The translations under genes were made by a program, and so were the position numbers. This document shows, one piece after another, positions 12,546-59,528 of a stretch of 64,000 bases of DNA. The notes beneath the pieces were generated by a model that was not told the DNA's origin, searched no databases, and saw nothing but the letters and a program-made list of their open reading frames with translations. Source of the stretch: Halobacterium sp. CBA1132 (GTDB lineage: Archaea > Halobacteriota > Halobacteria > Halobacteriales > Halobacteriaceae); NCBI RefSeq assembly GCF_001485535.1, contig NZ_BCMZ01000001.1:2170001-2234000 (forward strand), in the 5' to 3' direction. Within the stretch, counting starts at the first letter, position 1, and each line of letters begins with the position of its first letter.

Positions 12546-12740
12546 CGTGGACGACCGCAGGGAGTCCACGGAACGACCGAGTGGCGAGGGACGGAGTCCC
12601 TCGGACCGTTCGAGCGGGCGAAGCCCGCGAGAAGACGGGGAGGAACGACTCGCGAGTTGCGTGACCGAACGCAGTGAGGTCACGTTGTTGCGAGCGGCAC
12701 AGCCGCGATCCGCGTGGCCGACGCGTGAGTGACGCGGGAC
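12546..12740. repeat. Palindrome cluster after the DUF5786 gene
   Basis: Starting at the base after the stop codon, this segment holds a chain of hairpins: GTGGAC/GTCCAC, GAGGGAC/GTCCCTC, GCGGGC/GCCCGC, and GTGACC-GAACGCAGTGA-GGTCAC at 12661-12683, the last with the recurrent GA-NN-NNA-NN-GA cap. The block TCCACGGAAC followed by a CGAGCGGGC hairpin is shared with the insertion inside the threonine synthase-like gene at 39.25 kb. No gene is supported here. Confidence 0.7.
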
Positions 12741-12756
12741 TGCGAGGGGGGACAGC

Positions 12757-13308
12757 ATGAAATCGGGGACGCGGGCGCTCGGCGTGGCGGAGTCCTACCG
12801 GGGTGAGGAGTCCACGCTGGGCGGCGCCGTCGTGCGCGCGTCTCGCGTCGTCGACGGATTCTCGTTCGCTTCTTGTGCGGTCGGTGGCCTCGACAGCACC
12901 GCGGCCGTCGCCGACTGCTACCGGCAGTTGGACCGCGAGGACGTCCAGTACGTCCTCGTCTCGGGCATCGCGCCCGCGTGGTTCAACGTCGTGGACCTCC
13001 ACGCCGTCCACGACGCCGTCGAACGGCCCGTGCTCTCCGTCTCCTTCGAGGACAGCGAGGGGCTCGCGGACACCATCCGCGAGGAGTTCTCCGGGGACGC
13101 CCGCGAGGAGCGACTCGAAATCTACGACCGCCAGCCCGAACGCCAGCCCGTCGACGTGAACGGCGAGCGAGTATTCGTTCGGGCGGTCGGCTGCGAGAAT
13201 CCTGCAGAGGTCGTGCGCGCGTTCACGCCCGAGGGCGGCCGCCCGGAGCCGCTTCGAGTCGCCCGACTGGCGGCGCGAGCGGTCGAACGAAGTGAGACGG
13301 GTGACTGA
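12757..13308 (+). CDS. DUF99 family protein
   Basis: 183 residues of the archaeal DUF99 (UPF0215) family, distantly related to endonuclease V. Visible blocks are the start KSGTRALGVAESYRG, LVSGIAPAWFNVVDLHAVH and FVRAVGCENPAEVVRAF. The biochemical role is not established. The final residues (AVERSETGD) are encoded by a GAACGAAGTGA-capped palindrome at 13282-13298, so the C-terminus seems to have been extended by a repeat. It is followed 93 bp later by the uracil-DNA glycosylase gene on the same strand. Confidence 0.87.
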   Translation: MKSGTRALGVAESYRGEESTLGGAVVRASRVVDGFSFASCAVGGLDSTAAVADCYRQLDREDVQYVLVSGIAPAWFNVVDLHAVHDAVERPVLSVSFEDSEGLADTIREEFSGDAREERLEIYDRQPERQPVDVNGERVFVRAVGCENPAEVVRAFTPEGGRPEPLRVARLAARAVERSETGD

Positions 13309-13330
13309 GGAGGGGTGAACGTAGTGAGCC
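13281..13330. repeat. Two GA-capped hairpins at the end of the DUF99 gene
   Basis: GTC-GAACGAAGTGA-GAC at 13282-13298 lies inside the coding end of the DUF99 gene and GGT-GAACGTAGTGA-GCC at 13314-13330 lies just after its stop codon. Both have the 11-nt cap GAACNNAGTGA found elsewhere in the window on other stems. Confidence 0.65.
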
Positions 13331-17764: not shown

Positions 17765-17930
17765 AACGGGCATCCGCGAGCGAGCGGTTCGTAGAACCCG
17801 AGCGACGCGGTTCACCGCGCGAACGCAGTGAGCGCGGGCCGAGGAACCCCCGGAGGGGGTGACGCTGGCTTTTTCCGCAAGTTTTTGCAAGCGAGCGGCC
17901 TGCGGCCGCGAGCGCAGCAAAAAGTGCGTC
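17765..17930 (-). repeat. Class A structured element, copy 1 (after the SWIM gene)
   Basis: Begins at the base after the SWIM gene's stop codon and reads in the same direction. On the minus strand: GCACTTTTTGC, a GC-rich hairpin, GCAAAAACTTGCGGAAAAAGC, a CCCCCTCC/GGGGG hairpin, a CGCGC/GCGCG hairpin whose 11-nt cap is GAACGCAGTGA on the plus strand (17821-17831), the GTGAAC motif and a final stem ending GATGC. TTTTTGC (plus-strand 17917-17923) pairs with GCAAAAA (17882-17888) outside the inner hairpin. Confidence 0.75.
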
Positions 17931-18269
17931 TTAGAGAAAATCCCGGACTTCGCTGTAGTACATGTCGTGGTGGTCGACTTCGCCGACGCGTTCGGCGACG
18001 TCGACGGCGATGGCGTGCCAGCAGGATTCGTCGGGGTCGAGGTTGTACTGGCTGTCTTGGCAGTTGCAGTTGCCGGCTTCGACGATGTACTCGTCTTCGT
18101 GGCCGACGACGACGGTGAAGTCGTTGTACTGTTTGACGCGGCCTTCGCTGGCGGCTTCGATGGCGCGTTGGCCGCGGTCGCCGTGTTCGGCGAGGATGCG
18201 TTGGGTGATGGGGGCGGTGAGTTCGCCGGTGTCGGCGAGTGCGGCCCGCCAGTCGTCGACCTCGGGCAC
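17931..18269 (-). CDS. Small SWIM zinc-finger protein
   Basis: 112 residues. A CxC...CxH pattern (CNCQDSQYNLDPDESCWH) fits the SWIM domain, a zinc-binding module predicted to bind DNA or proteins. The rest, starting MPEVDDWRAALADTGEL, is acidic and helical with a short strand region TVVVGHEDEYIVEAG. Stand-alone haloarchaeal SWIM proteins have no established role. Its codon use is less GC-skewed than neighbours. A class A element starts directly after its stop codon. An AT-rich control region separates it from the aceA operon. Confidence 0.8.
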   Translation of the reverse strand: MPEVDDWRAALADTGELTAPITQRILAEHGDRGQRAIEAASEGRVKQYNDFTVVVGHEDEYIVEAGNCNCQDSQYNLDPDESCWHAIAVDVAERVGEVDHHDMYYSEVRDFL

Positions 18270-20994: not shown

Positions 20995-21198
20995 CGCGGA
21001 CGTGCTCACCCCCGCCCGCGGCCCGCCGCGTCGCTCGCCGTCGGCATCAACGGCGACACTCTTTCGCGGTGAGCGTTGTCGTTCGCTCACCGCTCGCTTG
21101 GCCCGAGAGACTTCGTCTCTCGCGGCTCACGGCTCACTGCGTTCGCCGTTCGCATTTCCGAGGGCGCAAAGCGCCCTCGCAACCGTCGGCCTTTTTTC
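20995..21198. repeat. Hairpin array after aceB ending in a T-run
   Basis: Stem-loops in order: GGTGAGCG/CGCTCACC near 21069-21091, CGAGAGA/TCTCTCG near 21103-21121, GGC-TCACTGCGTTC-GCC at 21131-21147 (minus-strand cap GAACGCAGTGA), and CGAGGGCGC/GCGCCCTCG near 21163-21183, followed by CCTTTTTTCC at about 21190-21199. The T-run after a strong hairpin could terminate the aceA-aceB transcript; it lies just before the trm1 gene. No coding sequence is supported. Confidence 0.6.
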
Positions 21199-29210: not shown

Positions 29211-29342
29211 GCGAGCATACGCGCGGCGAAGCCGCGCGTTTCACCGCGGCGAGCGCAGCGAGTCGCGGGACGTTTTTAGCGTAGATTTTTACGACGAGTG
29301 GTGTGCGAGCGCAGCGAGCGCACCCGAGGAGTAAAAAGGTAC
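29211..29342 (-). repeat. Class A structured element, copy 3 (tRNA-Ser side)
   Basis: On the minus strand: GTACCTTTTTAC, a hairpin, GTAAAAATCTACGCTAAAAACG, a CGCGAC/GCCGCG hairpin, GTGAAA, a CGCGCGG/CCGCGCG hairpin, then TATGCTCG. The outer stem is TTTTTAC with GTAAAAA (plus-strand 29286-29292 and 29331-29337), a compensated change relative to the GC version. Two hairpins inside (loops at 29251-29261 and 29307-29317) carry the cap GAGCGCAGCGA. Confidence 0.75.
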
Positions 29343-29361
29343 GAAGACGCCGGGACAGGGA
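29341..29361 (-). repeat. Copy of the tRNA-Ser 3' end
   Basis: ACGAAGACGCCGGGACAGGG plus one base here matches ACGAAAAACGCCGGGACAGG plus two at 29531-29552, which is the 3' end and trailer of tRNA-Ser (reverse strand). The pair of direct repeats encloses about 170 bp, like the att sites left by an element that integrated at the tRNA end. Confidence 0.65.
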
Positions 29362-29411
29362 CTGAGCGAACGCGGAGCGTTCGCGAGGGTCGGCGCGGCT
29401 TCGCCGCGCCG

Positions 29412-29467
29412 GGGTTTGAACCCGATGCCAGACCTCACTGTGTTCGGTCTGCCGTGGTTCAAATCCC
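29412..29467. repeat. Inverted repeat with T-arm-like ends
   Basis: GGGTTTGAACCC (29412-29423) and GGTTCAAATCCC (29456-29467) are oppositely oriented and both look like tRNA T-arms. Between them CAGACC (29429-29434) pairs with GGTCTG (29446-29451), with the 11-nt cap GAACACAGTGA on the minus strand. There is no acceptor or anticodon stem, so this is not a tRNA gene. Confidence 0.65.
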
Positions 29468-29538
29468 TCGCGTTCACTCGACGGAGACTCTCGCGGCGCG
29501 ACGAGACGCGCCGCTCGGAGTCGCTGCGTCACGAAAAA

Positions 29539-29620
29539 CGCCGGGACAGGGATTTGAACCCTGAACCCCGTAAGGGGACACGCTTTCCAGGCGTGCGCTT
29601 TGCCATTCGGCCATCCCGGC
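29539..29620 (-). tRNA. tRNA-Ser (anticodon GGA)
   Basis: On the minus strand the transcript starts GCCGGGATGGCCGAATGGC. The acceptor stem GCCGGGA pairs with TCCCGGC, followed by the discriminator G typical of tRNA-Ser. The anticodon stem-loop is CACGC-CTGGAAA-GCGTG, giving anticodon GGA (reads UCC and UCU). A long variable arm (CCCC...GGGG) and the T-arm GGGTTCAAATCCC follow. CCA is not encoded. A TATA-like TTTAAA lies at 29647-29652, 27 bp upstream, and a T-run follows the 3' end. Confidence 0.95.
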
Positions 29621-37528: not shown

Positions 37529-38485
37529 ATGACTACGCTCGGCACGGCGTCCGCGGACCCCGGGGAGTTCGACACGGGTCGACTCACCGTGGGCGAGATG
37601 CGGGACGGCACCGCAGTCGGCCTCCCGGTCGCGGTCGTGAACGGCGAACGCGACGGCAAAACCCTCTACATGCAGGCCGCAAGCGACGGCGACGAACTGA
37701 ACGGCGTCGGCGTGCTCCGCCGCGTCGTCCCGCAACTCGACCCCGCCGAACTCGCGGGCGAAGTGCGCGTCGTCGGCGTCACGAACTTCCACGCGTTCCA
37801 AGTCGCGGAACACCGCAACCCCATCGACGACACGAAACTCAACCGCGCGTATCCCGGCAGCGCGAACGGCTCCTCCTCCGAGCGCATCGCCCACGCCACG
37901 TTCGCCGCCGCCGAGGACGCCGACCTCATCCTCGACCTCCATCAGGGGTCGACCTCCCGGATGCTCAACGAGGTGCGCGTTCGCTGTGGCCGCCACCACC
38001 GCCTGCACGGCGACTGCCTCGAACTCGCGAAGGTGTTCGGCTGCGGGCACGTCCTCGACCAGAAGGGGCCCGAGGGCCAACTCGCGCGCGCCGGCCCCGC
38101 CGAGGGCATCCCCACCGTCGACCCCGAACTCGGCGGGAGCGTCGGCTTCGACGAGGAGTCCATCCAGTACGGCGTCGACGGCGTGTTCAACGTCCTCCGC
38201 TACTACGGGTTCCTCGACGGCGACGTCGAGACGGAGCGACAGACCCGCGCGAAGGACTTCGACCGCTACGGCTCCCCCGTAGGTGGCATCGTCGAGTACA
38301 AACAGGACCTCGGCGACGAGGTGCGCGCCGGTGACACCCTCTTCGAAGTCACCGACGTGTTCGGCACCCTCAAGGCCACCGTCACCGCGGACAACAGCGG
38401 CGTCTTCTGGCGCTCCCGCCGCCTCCCGCAGGTCGCCACCGGCGAGTACGTCTGCTCGGTCGGCACGGACGTCGACAAATACTAA
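37529..38485 (+). CDS. Succinylglutamate desuccinylase/aspartoacylase family protein
   Basis: 318 residues of the M14-like AstE/AspA family. A central NPIDDTKLNRAYPG block and the ILDLHQGS segment are characteristic, and the C-terminal 70 residues form a barrel-sandwich hybrid domain (GGIVEYKQDLGDEVRAGDTLFE). The usual zinc motif HGxE is DGDE here (AASDGDELNG), so His is replaced by Asp. Family members remove acyl groups from amino acids; the change may alter metal binding. A class A element starts right after the stop codon. Confidence 0.82.
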   Translation: MTTLGTASADPGEFDTGRLTVGEMRDGTAVGLPVAVVNGERDGKTLYMQAASDGDELNGVGVLRRVVPQLDPAELAGEVRVVGVTNFHAFQVAEHRNPIDDTKLNRAYPGSANGSSSERIAHATFAAAEDADLILDLHQGSTSRMLNEVRVRCGRHHRLHGDCLELAKVFGCGHVLDQKGPEGQLARAGPAEGIPTVDPELGGSVGFDEESIQYGVDGVFNVLRYYGFLDGDVETERQTRAKDFDRYGSPVGGIVEYKQDLGDEVRAGDTLFEVTDVFGTLKATVTADNSGVFWRSRRLPQVATGEYVCSVGTDVDKY

Positions 38486-38705
38486 ACACGCACTTTTTGC
38501 TGTGGGAGCGGCCTGCGGCCGCTCCCTGGCAAAAACTTGCGGAAAAAGCACTCCTCGCTCCTGCCGGCAGAGCGGAGCTCTGCCGAGGTCACGTTCGCTT
38601 CACTCACGTGACTGCCGCTCACTTCGTTCGCGTTAGTCGGTCGTCGGCCTCGCGGCTGCGCCGCGAGTGAATCGCGCTCGCTTCGCTCGCGCGAATACTC
38701 GTTCA
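38486..38705 (+). repeat. Class A structured element, copy 4 (after the AstE-like gene)
   Basis: Sense-oriented and beginning right after the TAA. TTTTTGC (38494-38500) pairs with GCAAAAA (38529-38535) around a perfect 10-bp hairpin, GGGAGCGGCC-TGC-GGCCGCTCCC (38504-38526). GGAAAAAGCACTCC follows. Extra hairpins include GTCACGT/ACGTGAC and one capped by GAACGAAGTGA (minus, 38619-38629). Then CTCGCGGC/GCCGCGAG, GTGAAT, a hairpin capped GAGCGAAGCGA (minus, 38678-38688), and AATACTCG. This is the longest copy. Confidence 0.75.
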
Positions 38706-38743
38706 TCGCCACGCTCAGGTAGCCCGTCCTCGTTCTCGGGAGT

Positions 38744-39868
38744 ATGCTCGAATGCCGTTCCTGCGGTCGAACCCACGAGTCCGGGCCCGAGGAGCCGTGG
38801 CGCTGCGAGTGCGGGCACGCGCTCGACTTCGCCGAGCGGCCGCTGCCGGACAGCGACGAGCCGGACGTCGACCCCCGCGATGGCCTGTGGGCGTTCTCTG
38901 AGTTCCTCCCGATTGGCGAGGAAGTGACACTCGGCGAGGGGTGGACGCCGCTGGCGGACGCGCCCCACTGGGACGCCGAGTTCAAACTGGACTACGTGTT
39001 TCCGTCGGGGAGCTACAAGGACCGCGGCGCGGCGCTGACGCTCTCTCGGGCGGCGGAGTTGGGTGTCGAGCGCGTCGTCGAGGACTCCTCGGGGAACGCC
39101 GGCGCGGCCATCGCGCAGTACGCCGCGCGCGCCGGCATCGACGCCGACATCTACGTGCCGGCGGACGCCAAGCAGTCGAAACTCGACGCCATCGAGGCCG
39201 CGGGCGCGACGGCGGTCCGCGTCGAAGGGAGCCGGCAGGACGTGACCGACGCCTGCGTGGAGCGCGTGGAACGACGCTCCACGGAACGGTCGAGCGGCGA
39301 CGAGCCGCGAGACGAAGCAGTCGGTGGCAATGCGTGGTACGCGAGTCACGCGTGGAACCCGGCGTTCTACGCGGGGACGTCGACGTTCGCGCTCGAACTC
39401 GCGGCGCAACGCGACTGGACCGTCCCGGACGCGGTGGTGCTCCCGCTCGGTCACGGCACCCTGTTTCTCGGCGCGTACCGCGGCTTTGCGGCGCTCGAGG
39501 CGGCGGGCTGGACGGACTCAGTCCCGCAGTTGCTCGGCGTGCAGGCGGCGGGCGTCGCGCCAGTCGTCGAGGCACTCCACGGCTCCGAAGAAGCGGGGAC
39601 GAACGACGTGGCGGACGGCATCCAGATTCGCGAACCAGCGCGCCAGAACCAACTGCTGGACGCCATCGACGCGACCGACGGCGACGCCATCGCGTGCGAC
39701 GCCGAAGCGACCGAGGACGCACTGGACGCGCTCCACGAGCGCGGACTCTACGTCGAGCCGACGAGCGCCGTCGGCGTCGCCGGCCTAGAAGCGTACCGCG
39801 AGCGCGGCGTCCTCGACGCGCACGACGACGTGGTCGTCGGGCTGACCGGCAGCGGACTGAAGAAGTAG
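38744..39868 (+). CDS. Threonine synthase-like PLP enzyme with palindromic insert
   Basis: 374 residues. An N-terminal zinc ribbon (CRSCGRT...CECGHAL, 4-24) precedes a fold-type II PLP domain with Lys92 in SGSYKDRGA, SSGNAGAA (about 115-122) and a C-terminal glycine-rich loop VVLPLGHGTLFLGAY. It may convert O-phosphohomoserine to threonine or be a related lyase. Residues about 175-194 (starting VERRSTERSSGDEP) sit between TDACVER and AWYASHAWNPAF and are encoded by palindromic repeat DNA, lengthening the protein without breaking the frame. Confidence 0.88.
   Translation: MLECRSCGRTHESGPEEPWRCECGHALDFAERPLPDSDEPDVDPRDGLWAFSEFLPIGEEVTLGEGWTPLADAPHWDAEFKLDYVFPSGSYKDRGAALTLSRAAELGVERVVEDSSGNAGAAIAQYAARAGIDADIYVPADAKQSKLDAIEAAGATAVRVEGSRQDVTDACVERVERRSTERSSGDEPRDEAVGGNAWYASHAWNPAFYAGTSTFALELAAQRDWTVPDAVVLPLGHGTLFLGAYRGFAALEAAGWTDSVPQLLGVQAAGVAPVVEALHGSEEAGTNDVADGIQIREPARQNQLLDAIDATDGDAIACDAEATEDALDALHERGLYVEPTSAVGVAGLEAYRERGVLDAHDDVVVGLTGSGLKK
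39255..39330. repeat. Palindromic insertion inside the threonine synthase-like gene
   Basis: GTGGAGCG/CGCTCCAC (about 39258-39283) is followed by GGAACGGTCGAGCGGC and a GCGGC/GCCGC hairpin. The TCCACGGAAC plus CGAGCGG block recurs in the intergenic cluster at 12546-12640, so this is a dispersed repeat and not ordinary coding sequence. About 60 bp, a multiple of three. Confidence 0.7.
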
Positions 39869-46724: not shown

Positions 46725-46778
46725 TACCAGAGTTGGCGGGCCACCCGACCAAAAGCGGTGCGATTACCGAGCCGAGAC

Positions 46779-46932
46779 GAGCATCCGCGAGCGCCGCGAG
46801 GCGCGAGCGGTTCACCGCGCGAACGGAGTGAGCGCGGGCCGACGACCGACCGTAGGGAGGGAGGAGTGCTTTTAGTGCAGGTTTTGCCGAGCGAGGCGCG
46901 CGGAGCGCGCCTCGCGCAGCGCAAAAAGTGCG
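46779..46932 (-). repeat. Class A structured element, copy 5 (after carS)
   Basis: Begins right after the carS stop codon. On the minus strand: GCACTTTTTGC, a CGAGGCGCGC/GCGCGCCTCG hairpin, GGCAAAACCTGCACTAAAAGCACTCC, then CCCGCGC/GCGCGG around a hairpin whose plus-strand cap is GAACGGAGTGA (46821-46831), GTGAAC, a final stem and GATGCTCG. The outer stem is GCAAAAA (46921-46927) with TTTTGC (46882-46887). Confidence 0.75.
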
Positions 46933-47478
46933 TTAGTATGGCTCGTTCTTCAGGCCGAGCAGATAGGCGATACCGTTGGTGAGGACGTGGAGCAGCGGCG
47001 TGAGCACGAGGATGGCGACGACGACGTCGAGGGTGAAGGTGGCGCCGAACCAGGCGGGGGCGGCGAGAGCGGCGAGGGCGAGCGCGACGACGACGAAGTC
47101 GAGTTGGTCGAGGAGGGGGAAGGCGGCGCCGCGTTCGCGGCCGGTGCGGCGCTTGAGGAACGAGGCGAGGATGTCGCCGAGCATCGCACCGAGCGGGAGC
47201 GCGACCATCGCGGCGGCCGGGAACGACGGGAGTGCGACGCCGATGGCGTCGCTGACAGACGGTCCGATGGCGTTCAGGACGGCGGCGAGCGCGACGCCGG
47301 CGAGCACGCCGACGGCGGTGCCGCGCCACGTCTTCCCGTCGCCGAGCACGCGTTTGCCGCCCCACGTGCGGCCGCCGTCGATGGGGCGGCCGCCGCCCGC
47401 CAGCACCGCGGCGTTGTTCGGCACGTACGCGGGCAGCATCACCCACACCGCAGTCGCGACCGTCGCTACGAGACCCAT
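46933..47478 (-). CDS. carS: CDP-archaeol synthase CarS
   Basis: 181 residues with about five membrane segments. [21 protein letters not shown] at the start and [10 protein letters not shown] in the second cytosolic loop are CarS features; the C-terminus is [20 protein letters not shown]. It joins CTP to unsaturated archaetidic acid to make CDP-archaeol, the branch point of archaeal phospholipids. GGPP synthase at 62 kb provides the isoprenoid precursor. A class A element follows the stop codon. Confidence 0.95.
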
Positions 47479-58113: not shown

Positions 58114-59364
58114 ATGAGCGAGCAGGAGGGCGCACCGTCCGAGGACCGCCGAAAGTACGAGTTCCAGAAGGTCATCGAGGACCTCAAGGACTACACCGGG
58201 AGCGGCACCCAACTGGTGACCATCTACATCCCCCCGGACAAGCAGATTTCGGACGTCGTCGCCCACGTCACGCAGGAACACTCCGAAGCCTCCAACATCA
58301 AGTCAAAGCAGACCCGAACGAACGTCCAGGACGCACTCAAGTCCATCAAGGACCGACTGCGGTACTACGACACGTTCCCGCCGGACAACGGCCTCGTCGT
58401 CTTCTCCGGCGCCATCGACAGCGGCGGCGGCCGCACCGACATGGTGACAGAAGTGCTGGAGTCACCACCCCAGCCAATCGAGTCGTTCCGCTACCACTGC
58501 GACGACGCGTTCCTCACCGAACCCCTCGAAGAGATGCTCGGGGACAAGGGCCTCTACGGCCTCATCGTCCTCGACCGCCGCGAAGCCAACGTCGGCTGGC
58601 TGAAGGGCAAACGCATCGAGGCCGTCAAGTCCGCGTCCAGCCTCGTCCCCGGCAAACAGCGCAAAGGCGGACAGTCCGCACAGCGGTTCGCCCGCCTCCG
58701 ACTGGAAGCCATCGACAACTTCTACCAGGAGGTCGCCGGAATGGCCGACGACCTCTTCGTCCCGCGGCGCCACGAAATCGACGGCATCCTCGTCGGCGGC
58801 CCCTCCCCGACGAAAGACGAGTTCCTCGACGGCGACTACCTCCACCACGAGCTCCAAGACACGGTCCTCGGGAAGTTCGACGTCTCCTACACCGACGAGT
58901 CCGGCCTGAAGGAACTGGTCGACCGCGCGCAGGAAACGCTCGCGGAAGCCGACCTGATGGACGACAAGTCCGACATGGAGGAGTTCTTCAAAGAGCTCAA
59001 CGGCGGCGACCTCGCCACCTACGGCTTCGAACCCACGCGGAAGAACCTCGTCATGGGCTCCGTCGAGACACTGCTCATCTCCGAAGACCTCCGCAAGGAC
59101 GTCGTCACCTACGAGTGCCCCAACGGCCACGAAGAACGCGAACTCATCAGCCAGCGCGCCGACACCCCCGAACACACCTGCTCGGAGTGCGGCGAAGACG
59201 CCGAGAACGCCGAACGAGACGACGCCATCGACCACCTCATGGAGATTGCCGACCAGCGCGGCACCGACACCCACTTCATCTCCACCGACTTCGAGAAAGG
59301 CGAACAACTGCTCACCGCCTTCGGTGGGATTGCCGGGCTGCTGCGCTACGGCACGGGCGTGTAA
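58114..59364 (+). CDS. prf1: Peptide chain release factor aRF1
   Basis: 416 residues. NIKS (61-64) recognises stop codons and GGQ (185-187, in KQRKGGQSAQRFARLR) triggers peptide release. The C-terminal domain has a zinc-binding insert CPNGHEE...CSECG. One factor reads all three stop codons in archaea. Single gene with its own promoter, divergent from minD. A class A structured element begins straight after its TAA stop codon, so the mRNA would end with that structure. Confidence 0.97.
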   Translation: MSEQEGAPSEDRRKYEFQKVIEDLKDYTGSGTQLVTIYIPPDKQISDVVAHVTQEHSEASNIKSKQTRTNVQDALKSIKDRLRYYDTFPPDNGLVVFSGAIDSGGGRTDMVTEVLESPPQPIESFRYHCDDAFLTEPLEEMLGDKGLYGLIVLDRREANVGWLKGKRIEAVKSASSLVPGKQRKGGQSAQRFARLRLEAIDNFYQEVAGMADDLFVPRRHEIDGILVGGPSPTKDEFLDGDYLHHELQDTVLGKFDVSYTDESGLKELVDRAQETLAEADLMDDKSDMEEFFKELNGGDLATYGFEPTRKNLVMGSVETLLISEDLRKDVVTYECPNGHEERELISQRADTPEHTCSECGEDAENAERDDAIDHLMEIADQRGTDTHFISTDFEKGEQLLTAFGGIAGLLRYGTGV

Positions 59365-59528
59365 AAGCACTTTTTGCTGCGCGAGCGGCGCTACGCGCCG
59401 CTCGCTGGCAAAAACTTGCGGAAAAAGCACTCCTCGCTCCCTACGGTCGCTCGTCGGCCTCGCGGCTTCGCCGCGAGTGAACCGCTCGCCTCGGGTCTTT
59501 CAGACCGCTCGGCTCGCGGATGCTGTTC
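59365..59528 (+). repeat. Class A structured element, copy 6 (after aRF1)
   Basis: Sense-oriented, starting after the TAA. TTTTTGC (59371-59377) pairs with GCAAAAA (59408-59414) around a perfect 11-bp hairpin, GCGAGCGGCGC-TAC-GCGCCGCTCGC (59381-59405). Then CTTGCGGAAAAAGCACTCCTC, a weak hairpin, CTCGCGGC/GCCGCGAG, GTGAAC, a final stem and GGATGCTG. This is the clearest copy. Confidence 0.8.

What the first reader, a model, noticed from the sequence alone, without database searches (positions are those of the whole stretch)
12661..12683. Recurrent hairpin cap GA-NN-NNA-NN-GA on unrelated stems
An 11-nt loop recurs on different, self-complementary stems: GAACGCAGTGA at 12667-12677 (stem GTGACC/GGTCAC), 17821-17831 and 21134-21144 (minus); GAACGGAGTGA 46821-46831; GAACACAGTGA 29435-29445 (minus); GAACGAAGTGA 13285-13295 and 38619-38629 (minus); GAACGTAGTGA 13317-13327. 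Variants GAGCGCAGCGA (29251-29261, 29307-29317) and GAGCGAAGCGA (38678-38688, minus) change AC/GT to GC/GC. The cap can form two G.A pairs, two Watson-Crick pairs and an NNA loop. Constant cap on changing stems suggests recognition by a protein, such as a Y1 (TnpA/RAYT) transposase acting on hairpin DNA, or an RNA-binding protein.
Basis: partly seen in the sequence, partly recalled or inferred. Interest (0 to 1): 0.8.

Follow-up and report, generated by a model that had tools for sequence, protein, structure and literature searches.

The report
Constant-capped DNA hairpins in haloarchaeal repeats
The recurring hairpin tip belongs to small palindromic repeats scattered through the DNA of salt-loving archaea, some of which sit in frame inside ordinary protein genes, and it has a shape that single-stranded DNA folds unusually well.

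Summary
All 11 listed caps are at their coordinates; 8 sit on stems of at least 5 bp, 3 (13285, 13317, 38619) on at most 3 bp. In 464 kb of this Halobacterium-genus genome, intergenic DNA has 94 GNA-triloop hairpins against a mean of about 2 in dinucleotide shuffles. The rule is C(GNA)G triloop, exactly 2 Watson-Crick pairs, tandem G.A pairs, then a variable perfect stem (60 of 66; also in two other genera). GAACGNAGTGA is enriched in 114 of 116 Halobacteria genomes, near background in most of 203 other genomes of the phylum. Y1 transposase/RAYT is rejected: 35 of 116 genomes lack it. The caps belong to dispersed multi-hairpin repeats. One ('HPE', window 12546-12660) also lies in frame inside genes: a 105-bp insert in endonuclease III of 2 genomes is cleanly absent from 11, as in Rickettsia palindromic elements. 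Another ('HbRE') starts 2-7 nt after a stop codon in 29 of 34 copies, with covarying stems. C-G-closed GNA loops, same-strand arrays and scarce G.T pairs favour folded single-stranded DNA over RNA; the intermediate and any binding protein are inferred.

The parts
12546..12660 (+). HPE copy (haloarchaeal palindromic element), intergenic here, directly after a TAG stop codon; three GNA hairpins in series
   Evidence: Repeat found in 60 of 116 class genomes at E<=1e-3; in frame inside genes elsewhere; orthologous place nearly empty in G066, G116, G118, G003, G012 (2-3 nt between the aligned flanks)
12546..12570 (+). HPE hairpin 1: CGTGGAC / cap GACCGCAGGGA / GTCCACG
12585..12603 (+). HPE hairpin 2: CGAGGGAC GGA GTCCCTCG
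12609..12633 (+). HPE hairpin 3: TTC-GA-GCGGGC GAA GCCCGC-GA-GAA (tandem G.A at 6 bp)
12660..12684 (+). The finding's hairpin: CGTGACC / cap GAACGCAGTGA / GGTCACG, next in the same array
13285..13295 (+). cap GAACGAAGTGA, stem only 3 bp, end of the gene called at 12757-13308
13317..13327 (+). cap GAACGTAGTGA, no Watson-Crick stem
17802..17932 (+). HbRE copy (stop-codon-adjacent repeat) with cap hairpin 17815-17837
21125..21153 (-). hairpin GC-GA-ACGGC-GA-AC-GCA-GT-GA-GCCGT-GA-GC (two tandem G.A steps, 2 and 5 bp)
29228..29446 (.). array of GNA hairpins including caps 29251, 29307 (+) and 29435 (-)
38479..38727 (-). HbRE copy behind the stop codon at 38485; GNA strand is minus for 5 of 6 hairpins; caps 38619 and 38678
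46776..46939 (+). HbRE copy with cap hairpin at 46821; kept at the orthologous place in 8 other genomes with different stems
59367..59493 (-). HbRE copy behind the stop codon at 59364

Best explanation
The cap is the apex of a DNA hairpin: a C(GNA)G triloop, two Watson-Crick pairs and a tandem of sheared G.A pairs, on a stem whose sequence is free. It is the shared building block of several families of small, dispersed, multi-hairpin palindromic repeats of the class Halobacteria. SHOWN: the grammar and its excess; same-strand arrays; variable but paired stems; copies between genes and in frame inside genes; a clean insertion without visible target duplication in one gene. INFERRED: the repeats spread or are kept as a folded single strand of DNA, in which GNA caps are among the most compact and nuclease-resistant folds known, so selection acts on 'folds well', not on stem sequence. 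Once inside a gene the loop drifts, and stems are held by pairing or refreshed by copying from the other arm or from other copies. NOT KNOWN: which enzyme moves them and whether a protein reads the cap.
For: Grammar: first G.A tandem exactly 2 bp from GNA in 60 of 66, 16 of 16 and 8 of 9 in two other genera; base 5' of GA is C or T in 49 of 50; closing pair C-G in 77 of 83 and 22 of 23 on the slot alignment while the other pairs vary. DNA rather than RNA: the RNA parameter set (Turner 2004) lists no GNA triloop among its special loops; d(GCGNAGC) is the published ultra-stable DNA minihairpin (Hirao 1994 and Yoshizawa 1997, titles seen in the reference list of PMC11101458); loops of 4 nt show no excess between genes. 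Single strand: neighbouring hairpins point the same way 45 to 7, 12 to 1, 4 to 1; in HbRE slots GNA is on one strand 53 to 10. Stems: 43 of 134 cells changed on both sides, 0 on one side only, covariation 0.747 against 0.179 shuffled. Mobility: 105-bp in-frame insert in endonuclease III of 2 of 13 genomes, gap-free empty site in 11; of 24 in-genus HPE loci, 17 have coding-like sequence on both sides in an open frame, always with the same peptide frame; 11 of 20 loci from other genera pass the same test.
Against: No single-stranded DNA intermediate, no enzyme and no binding protein is shown. Strand polarity, conserved linkers and covarying stems are also what a structured RNA would show, and G.T exceeds A.C in stems (24 to 7). 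HbRE at 46776-46939 is kept at one place across the genus, which looks like function rather than selfish DNA. In in-gene HPE copies hairpin 3 has a GNA loop in only 16 of 35, so the cap is not needed there. Slot cores were centred by best pairing, which favours paired cells. Gene calls are from a home-made codon-usage caller.
Confidence: 0.5

Rival explanations
1. Structured RNA: the GNA strand is transcribed and the hairpins act in 3' untranslated regions or small RNAs, for example as a bidirectional terminator and stabiliser between genes (HbRE has T-runs on both strands).
For: HbRE begins 2-7 nt after a coding stop in 29 of 34 copies with CACTTTTTGC on one strand and GTGCTTTTTCCGCAAGTTTTTGC on the other; linkers conserved while stems covary; in some genomes a convergent gene lies on the other side; G.T over A.C 24 to 7.
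Against: Orientation to flanking genes near random outside HbRE (12 to 7); in tandem gene pairs the HbRE GNA strand is antisense to both genes in 3 of 4 arrays so labelled; GNA triloops are not special in the RNA parameters; a T-run follows only 3 of 94 hairpins; no Rfam match in the window except a tRNA.
Confidence: 0.22
2. Mutational by-product: 3' ends fold back on chance GNA minihairpins and copy their own strand, or one arm is corrected from the other, so perfect stems with GNA tips arise again and again without function.
For: Near-identical copies differ by paired changes and by loop flips GGA/TCC (window, L125 and L129; flips); whole hairpins are exchanged between conserved linkers in orthologs; the array at 12546 starts at a CGTGG already present in the empty-site genome G066.
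Against: Copying would turn the G.A tandem into Watson-Crick pairs, yet GA/GA outnumbers Watson-Crick 44 to 13 at that position; exact 2-bp spacing and one-strand bias in slots; dispersed families with conserved linkers.
Confidence: 0.18
3. REP-like elements moved by a Y1 (TnpA/RAYT) transposase that recognises the cap.
For: Y1 genes present (3 copies); hairpin repeats lie beside and inside an IS200/IS605-type element (L002).
Against: 35 of 116 genomes lack Y1 but have caps; G014 and G053 have 10 and 5 Y1 genes and background caps.
Confidence: 0.04
4. Supercoil-driven cruciforms as chromosome-structure sites (gyrase or architectural-protein binding), the cap only easing extrusion.
For: Intergenic, palindromic, perfect stems.
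Against: A cruciform shows both strands alike, so it does not explain the same-strand arrays (45 to 7) or slot bias (53 to 10).
Confidence: 0.06

Closest known systems
Rickettsia palindromic elements (RPE; passages of PMC10969869)
   Same: Hairpin-forming repeats of about 100-150 bp, inserted in frame in unrelated housekeeping genes, giving a conserved peptide; absent from orthologs
   Different: Archaeal host class; tips follow the GNA/G.A DNA-minihairpin rule; copies also fill intergenic arrays; no sequence comparison with RPE was made
Streptomyces telomere palindromes (passages of PMC7205883 and PMC4513846)
   Same: Several stems of variable sequence in series, capped by GCA/GGA/GNA loops closed by a sheared G.A pair, with paired changes; act as folded single-stranded DNA (3' overhang) bound by Tap
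   Different: Here the arrays are inside chromosomes and inside genes, and add a tandem G.A step 2 bp from the loop
REP/BIME elements with GTAG or CGTC tags and RAYTs (passages of PMC3733652, PMC12306157)
   Same: Dispersed extragenic palindromes, some within 15 nt of a stop codon
   Different: Families there are defined by a tag at the foot of the hairpin; here the constant part is the tip and no Y1 gene is needed
Small mobile repeats and PATEs of Haloquadratum walsbyi (passages of PMC3119063)
   Same: Haloarchaeal, about 110 bp or with palindromes, no target duplication, mobilisation unknown for SMRs
   Different: SMRs have terminal inverted repeats and target IS605-type palindromes; HPE has neither feature in the insertion examined
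d(GCGNAGC) minihairpins (Hirao 1994, Yoshizawa 1997; titles only, via PMC11101458)
   Same: C(GNA)G tip
   Different: Studied as synthetic fragments; here a genomic grammar with the added G.A tandem

Membership tests
Rickettsia palindromic element-like repeat | palindromic repeat inserted in frame in unrelated protein genes | tested here: met
   17 of 24 in-genus loci coding-like on both sides of an open frame; Pfam domains HhH-GPD, GNAT, TRM5/TYW2, chorismate_bind, pseudouridine synthase, NUDIX and others
Rickettsia palindromic element-like repeat | orthologs without the insert | tested here: met
   endonuclease III: 105-bp insert in 2 genomes, empty in 11; other genes not tested
Rickettsia palindromic element-like repeat | sequence homology to a known RPE family | not tested
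   no RPE sequence was compared
REP/RAYT | GTAG or CGTC tag at the foot of the hairpin | tested here: not met
   by eye in the 45 hairpins listed with flanks: no shared tag
REP/RAYT | Y1 transposase in carrier genomes | tested here: not met
   35 of 116 genomes without PF01797
MITE | terminal inverted repeats and target duplication | tested here: not met
   one insertion only, endonuclease III: neither seen
Small mobile repeat (Haloquadratum SMR) | about 110 bp, no target duplication, terminal inverted repeats, targets IS605-type palindromes | tested here: not met
   size and lack of duplication fit; inverted termini and target preference do not
Streptomyces-type telomere | series of GNA-capped palindromes with paired changes | tested here: met
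Streptomyces-type telomere | end of a linear replicon with terminal protein | tested here: not met
   arrays lie inside a 2.59-Mb contig, between and inside genes; no terminal-protein search was made
Kink-turn | 3-nt bulge between stem and tandem G.A | tested here: not met
   the counted cap hairpins have the stem directly next to the G.A tandem, with no bulge
Intrinsic terminator | T-run directly 3' of the hairpin | tested here: not met
   3 of 94 in this genome, 5 of 28 in G068, 0 of 13 in G083

The most novel reading that the evidence does not exclude
Halobacteria carry a class-wide system of mobile single-stranded-DNA hairpins whose only fixed part is the GNA/G.A tip, read by a still unknown haloarchaeal protein or polymerase that copies and inserts folded strands; one branch (HPE) inserts in frame into essential genes, the archaeal counterpart of Rickettsia palindromic elements, and another (HbRE) is placed at the stop codon and has been turned into a gene-end element.
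Probability: 0.25. Interest if true: 0.88.

Novelty: new variant of a known kind. Interest (0 to 1): 0.72.

Why it matters
It gives a structural rule that predicts a large set of unannotated features in one archaeal class, links DNA-minihairpin chemistry to genome evolution, and adds an archaeal case of palindromic repeats that write peptides into housekeeping enzymes (endonuclease III, Trm5, GNAT and anthranilate-synthase-type proteins; by eye also IleRS-, TrpB- and Hel308-like sequences). It makes an open question testable: whether folded single-stranded DNA, not a transposase end, can be what spreads.

Tried and rejected
RAYT/Y1: rejected. Kink-turn: rejected, no bulge. Intrinsic terminators: T-run 3' of 3 of 94. 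Replication-strand polarity: best two-arc split of 80 cap clusters, permutation p 0.25, not supported. Known RNA family: only a tRNA-Ser in the window. DNA parameters of ViennaRNA hold no special triloops, so no energy comparison was made. A comparison of near-identical hairpins was biased because only perfect stems entered; I use it only for loop flips. A peptide scan of the named loci used a wrong expression and found nothing even where copies exist; the corrected scan found 5 places, all in this genome (window, L007, L008, L019, L021) and none in the 80 named loci or in the G068/G083 stretches. A search of solved structures with the peptide found nothing at E up to 1. Named loci of other genera had few perfect cap hairpins (6 GA/GA), lower than the genome-wide pattern counts suggest; the reason is not known.

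Literature (library of open PubMed Central papers only): searches. None listed a paper on GNA-capped hairpin repeats or in-frame palindromic elements in haloarchaea; most subscription papers are not held, so this is not proof of absence. Recalled, from no call: the pyrimidine-GA-purine rule for sheared G.A tandems and general knowledge of RNA tetraloops.

Full report
Origin. The window is C1:2170001-2234000 of G000, a 3.01-Mb genome. Its nearest named relatives by the protein of 38744-39868 are Halobacterium sp. KA-4 (L023) and TGN-42-S1 (L024).

Observation. All 11 caps of the finding are where stated. The genome holds 97 GAACNNAGTGA against 4 for the reversed pattern. With a home-made codon-usage gene caller, 10 of the 13 GA[AG]CNNAG[TC]GA sites of the window are outside called genes; 34283 and 62909 are inside genes and 13285 is at the last bases of a called gene. 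On 464 kb (window plus 20 stretches, chosen partly because they hold caps) perfect intergenic hairpins with 3-nt loops are mostly GNA or its complement TNC: 24 of 38 with stems of 8 bp or more, against 5 of 32 in called genes. At 2 bp from a GNA loop, with 5 bp or more outside, the internal step was GA/GA in 44, Watson-Crick in 13 and other in 3 intergenic cases, and GA/GA in none of 10 in called genes. Shuffled intergenic sequences gave 0-4 hairpins where 94 are real.

Grammar. The first G.A tandem is 2 bp from the loop in 60 of 66, and a second one is 5 bp further in 9 of 13. The base before GA is C or T in 49 of 50, and xy is AC 19, GC 17, CC 11, GT 2, CT 1. The same spacing holds in G068 (16 of 16) and G083 (8 of 9) of another family. 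GAACGNAGTGA exceeds its control at least threefold in 114 of 116 class genomes; the exceptions are G014 (11 against 11) and G053 (7 against 6). In a phylum sample, 42 of the 43 class members exceed control, and most of the other 203 genomes are near it; some, such as G253 (19 against 2) and G232 (14 against 0), show a milder excess that I did not follow.

Strand. Neighbouring hairpins in one intergenic region have GNA on the same strand 45 to 7, 12 to 1 and 4 to 1 in the two other genera. Against flanking tandem genes, single hairpins outside called genes are 24 sense, 21 antisense; arrays without HbRE are 12 sense, 7 antisense. Stems hold 24 G.T and 7 A.C mispairs beside about 1,100 Watson-Crick pairs.

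HbRE. The intergenic region 38485-38744 is a dispersed repeat; a search with this region and its flanks gave 2 to 44 matches per genome in 13 genus genomes, the flanking genes included. Copies begin with CACTTTTT close behind a stop codon: 29 of 34 pattern matches have a coding-like stop 2-7 nt before it (some are orthologs of one another). Hairpins sit in slots between conserved linkers; among 63 slot hairpins of GNA or TNC type, GNA is on the strand antisense to the upstream gene in 53 and on the other in 10 (the expressions also caught unrelated coding stretches, most of which did not fold as GNA). At the orthologous place of 46776-46939 the repeat is present in G066, G119, G121, G120, G093, G012, G118 and G003, partial in G117, absent in G018 and G023; the hit of G116 (L182) gave no junction. 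Linkers stay, stems change. On 23 slot-A cores 96.3% of cells pair, 43 cells changed on both sides, none on one side only, covariation 0.747 against a shuffled mean of 0.179 (cores were centred by best pairing). At 38485 the genomes G012, G093 and G120 have only about 20 nt between the genes.

HPE. The array 12546-12757 lies between genes that are 2-3 nt apart between aligned flanks in G066, G116, G118, G003 and G012, while G121, G119, G093 and G120 carry 26-129 nt of other sequence there. Its first 115 bp recur in the genome. Of 24 loci examined (20 fetched plus L007, L008, L019, L021), 17 have coding-like codon use on both sides of an open frame; L206, L211 and L215 do not; the other four (L209, L217, L220, L222) are open but weaker on one side, two of them just after a start codon. 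The frame is the same and reads ..ASSEGRSPSDRSSGRSPREDGE... Proteins hit include HhH-GPD (endonuclease III type), TRM5/TYW2, GNAT, chorismate-binding, pseudouridine synthase and NUDIX families. For endonuclease III, G000 and G119 carry 105 extra bp where the other 11 genus genomes align without a gap; I see no target duplication and no inverted ends. In other genera, 11 of 20 fetched loci pass the same frame test. HPE-like matches reach E<=1e-3 in 60 of 116 class genomes, many of them short and possibly only shared hairpin parts. The finding's 11-mers GAACGGAGTGA and GAACGCAGTGA occur as the tip of HPE hairpin 1 in L217 and L221. Loops drift in genes: hairpin 3 is GNA in 16 of 35 in-gene and 5 of 6 other copies.

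What it works like. GNA tips closed by C-G are a property of DNA minihairpins; the Streptomyces telomere literature describes variable stems capped by GCA, GGA or GNA loops closed by sheared G.A, nuclease-resistant and bound as single strand by Tap (passages). That is the best physical analogue. In lifestyle, HPE is closest to Rickettsia palindromic elements (passages). Membership in RPE by sequence was not tested; REP/RAYT, MITE and SMR membership fail tested features.

Judgement. Shown: cap, grammar, class-wide excess, dispersed repeats, in-frame insertion in one clean case and many open frames. Inferred: a folded single-stranded DNA stage. Unknown: mover and reader of the cap.

Noticed in passing
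L007:17405-17510 (G000:C1:467405-467510): 105-bp palindromic repeat in frame inside an endonuclease III gene; shared with G119, absent from 11 other genus genomes.
   Followed up: yes
L241, L248, L251, L253, L259, L260: HPE-like in-frame peptides in genes that by eye resemble isoleucyl-tRNA synthetase, topoisomerase I, Hel308, tryptophan synthase beta and an amino-acid kinase in other haloarchaeal genera (names by eye, no family search; L248 and L260 fell below the frame-test threshold).
   Followed up: partly
L002 (G000:C1 near 1855992-1856354): The tnpB-like gene beside a Y1 gene is interrupted by a two-hairpin insert of about 60 bp that the copy in L001 lacks; the same mini-repeat lies in the hairpin cluster next to it.
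   Followed up: partly
window 29401-29470: The cap hairpin at 29435 lies between two inverted tRNA T-arm-like stretches about 95 nt behind tRNA-Ser (29539-29620 minus).
   Followed up: no
G014 and G053: Two Halobacteria genomes with no cap excess but 10 and 5 Y1 transposase genes: natural controls for the missing factor.
   Followed up: no
G191, G232, G253, G183 (same phylum, other classes): Mild excess of GAACGNAGTGA over control outside Halobacteria.
   Followed up: no
intergenic hairpins of L003-L022 and window: A smaller group of ANC triloops also carries the G.A tandem at 2 bp (6 cases).
   Followed up: no
window 17868-17932, 38490-38560, 46900-46939, 59367-59430: T-runs on both strands around slot A right behind stop codons: possible bidirectional terminator.
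   Followed up: partly
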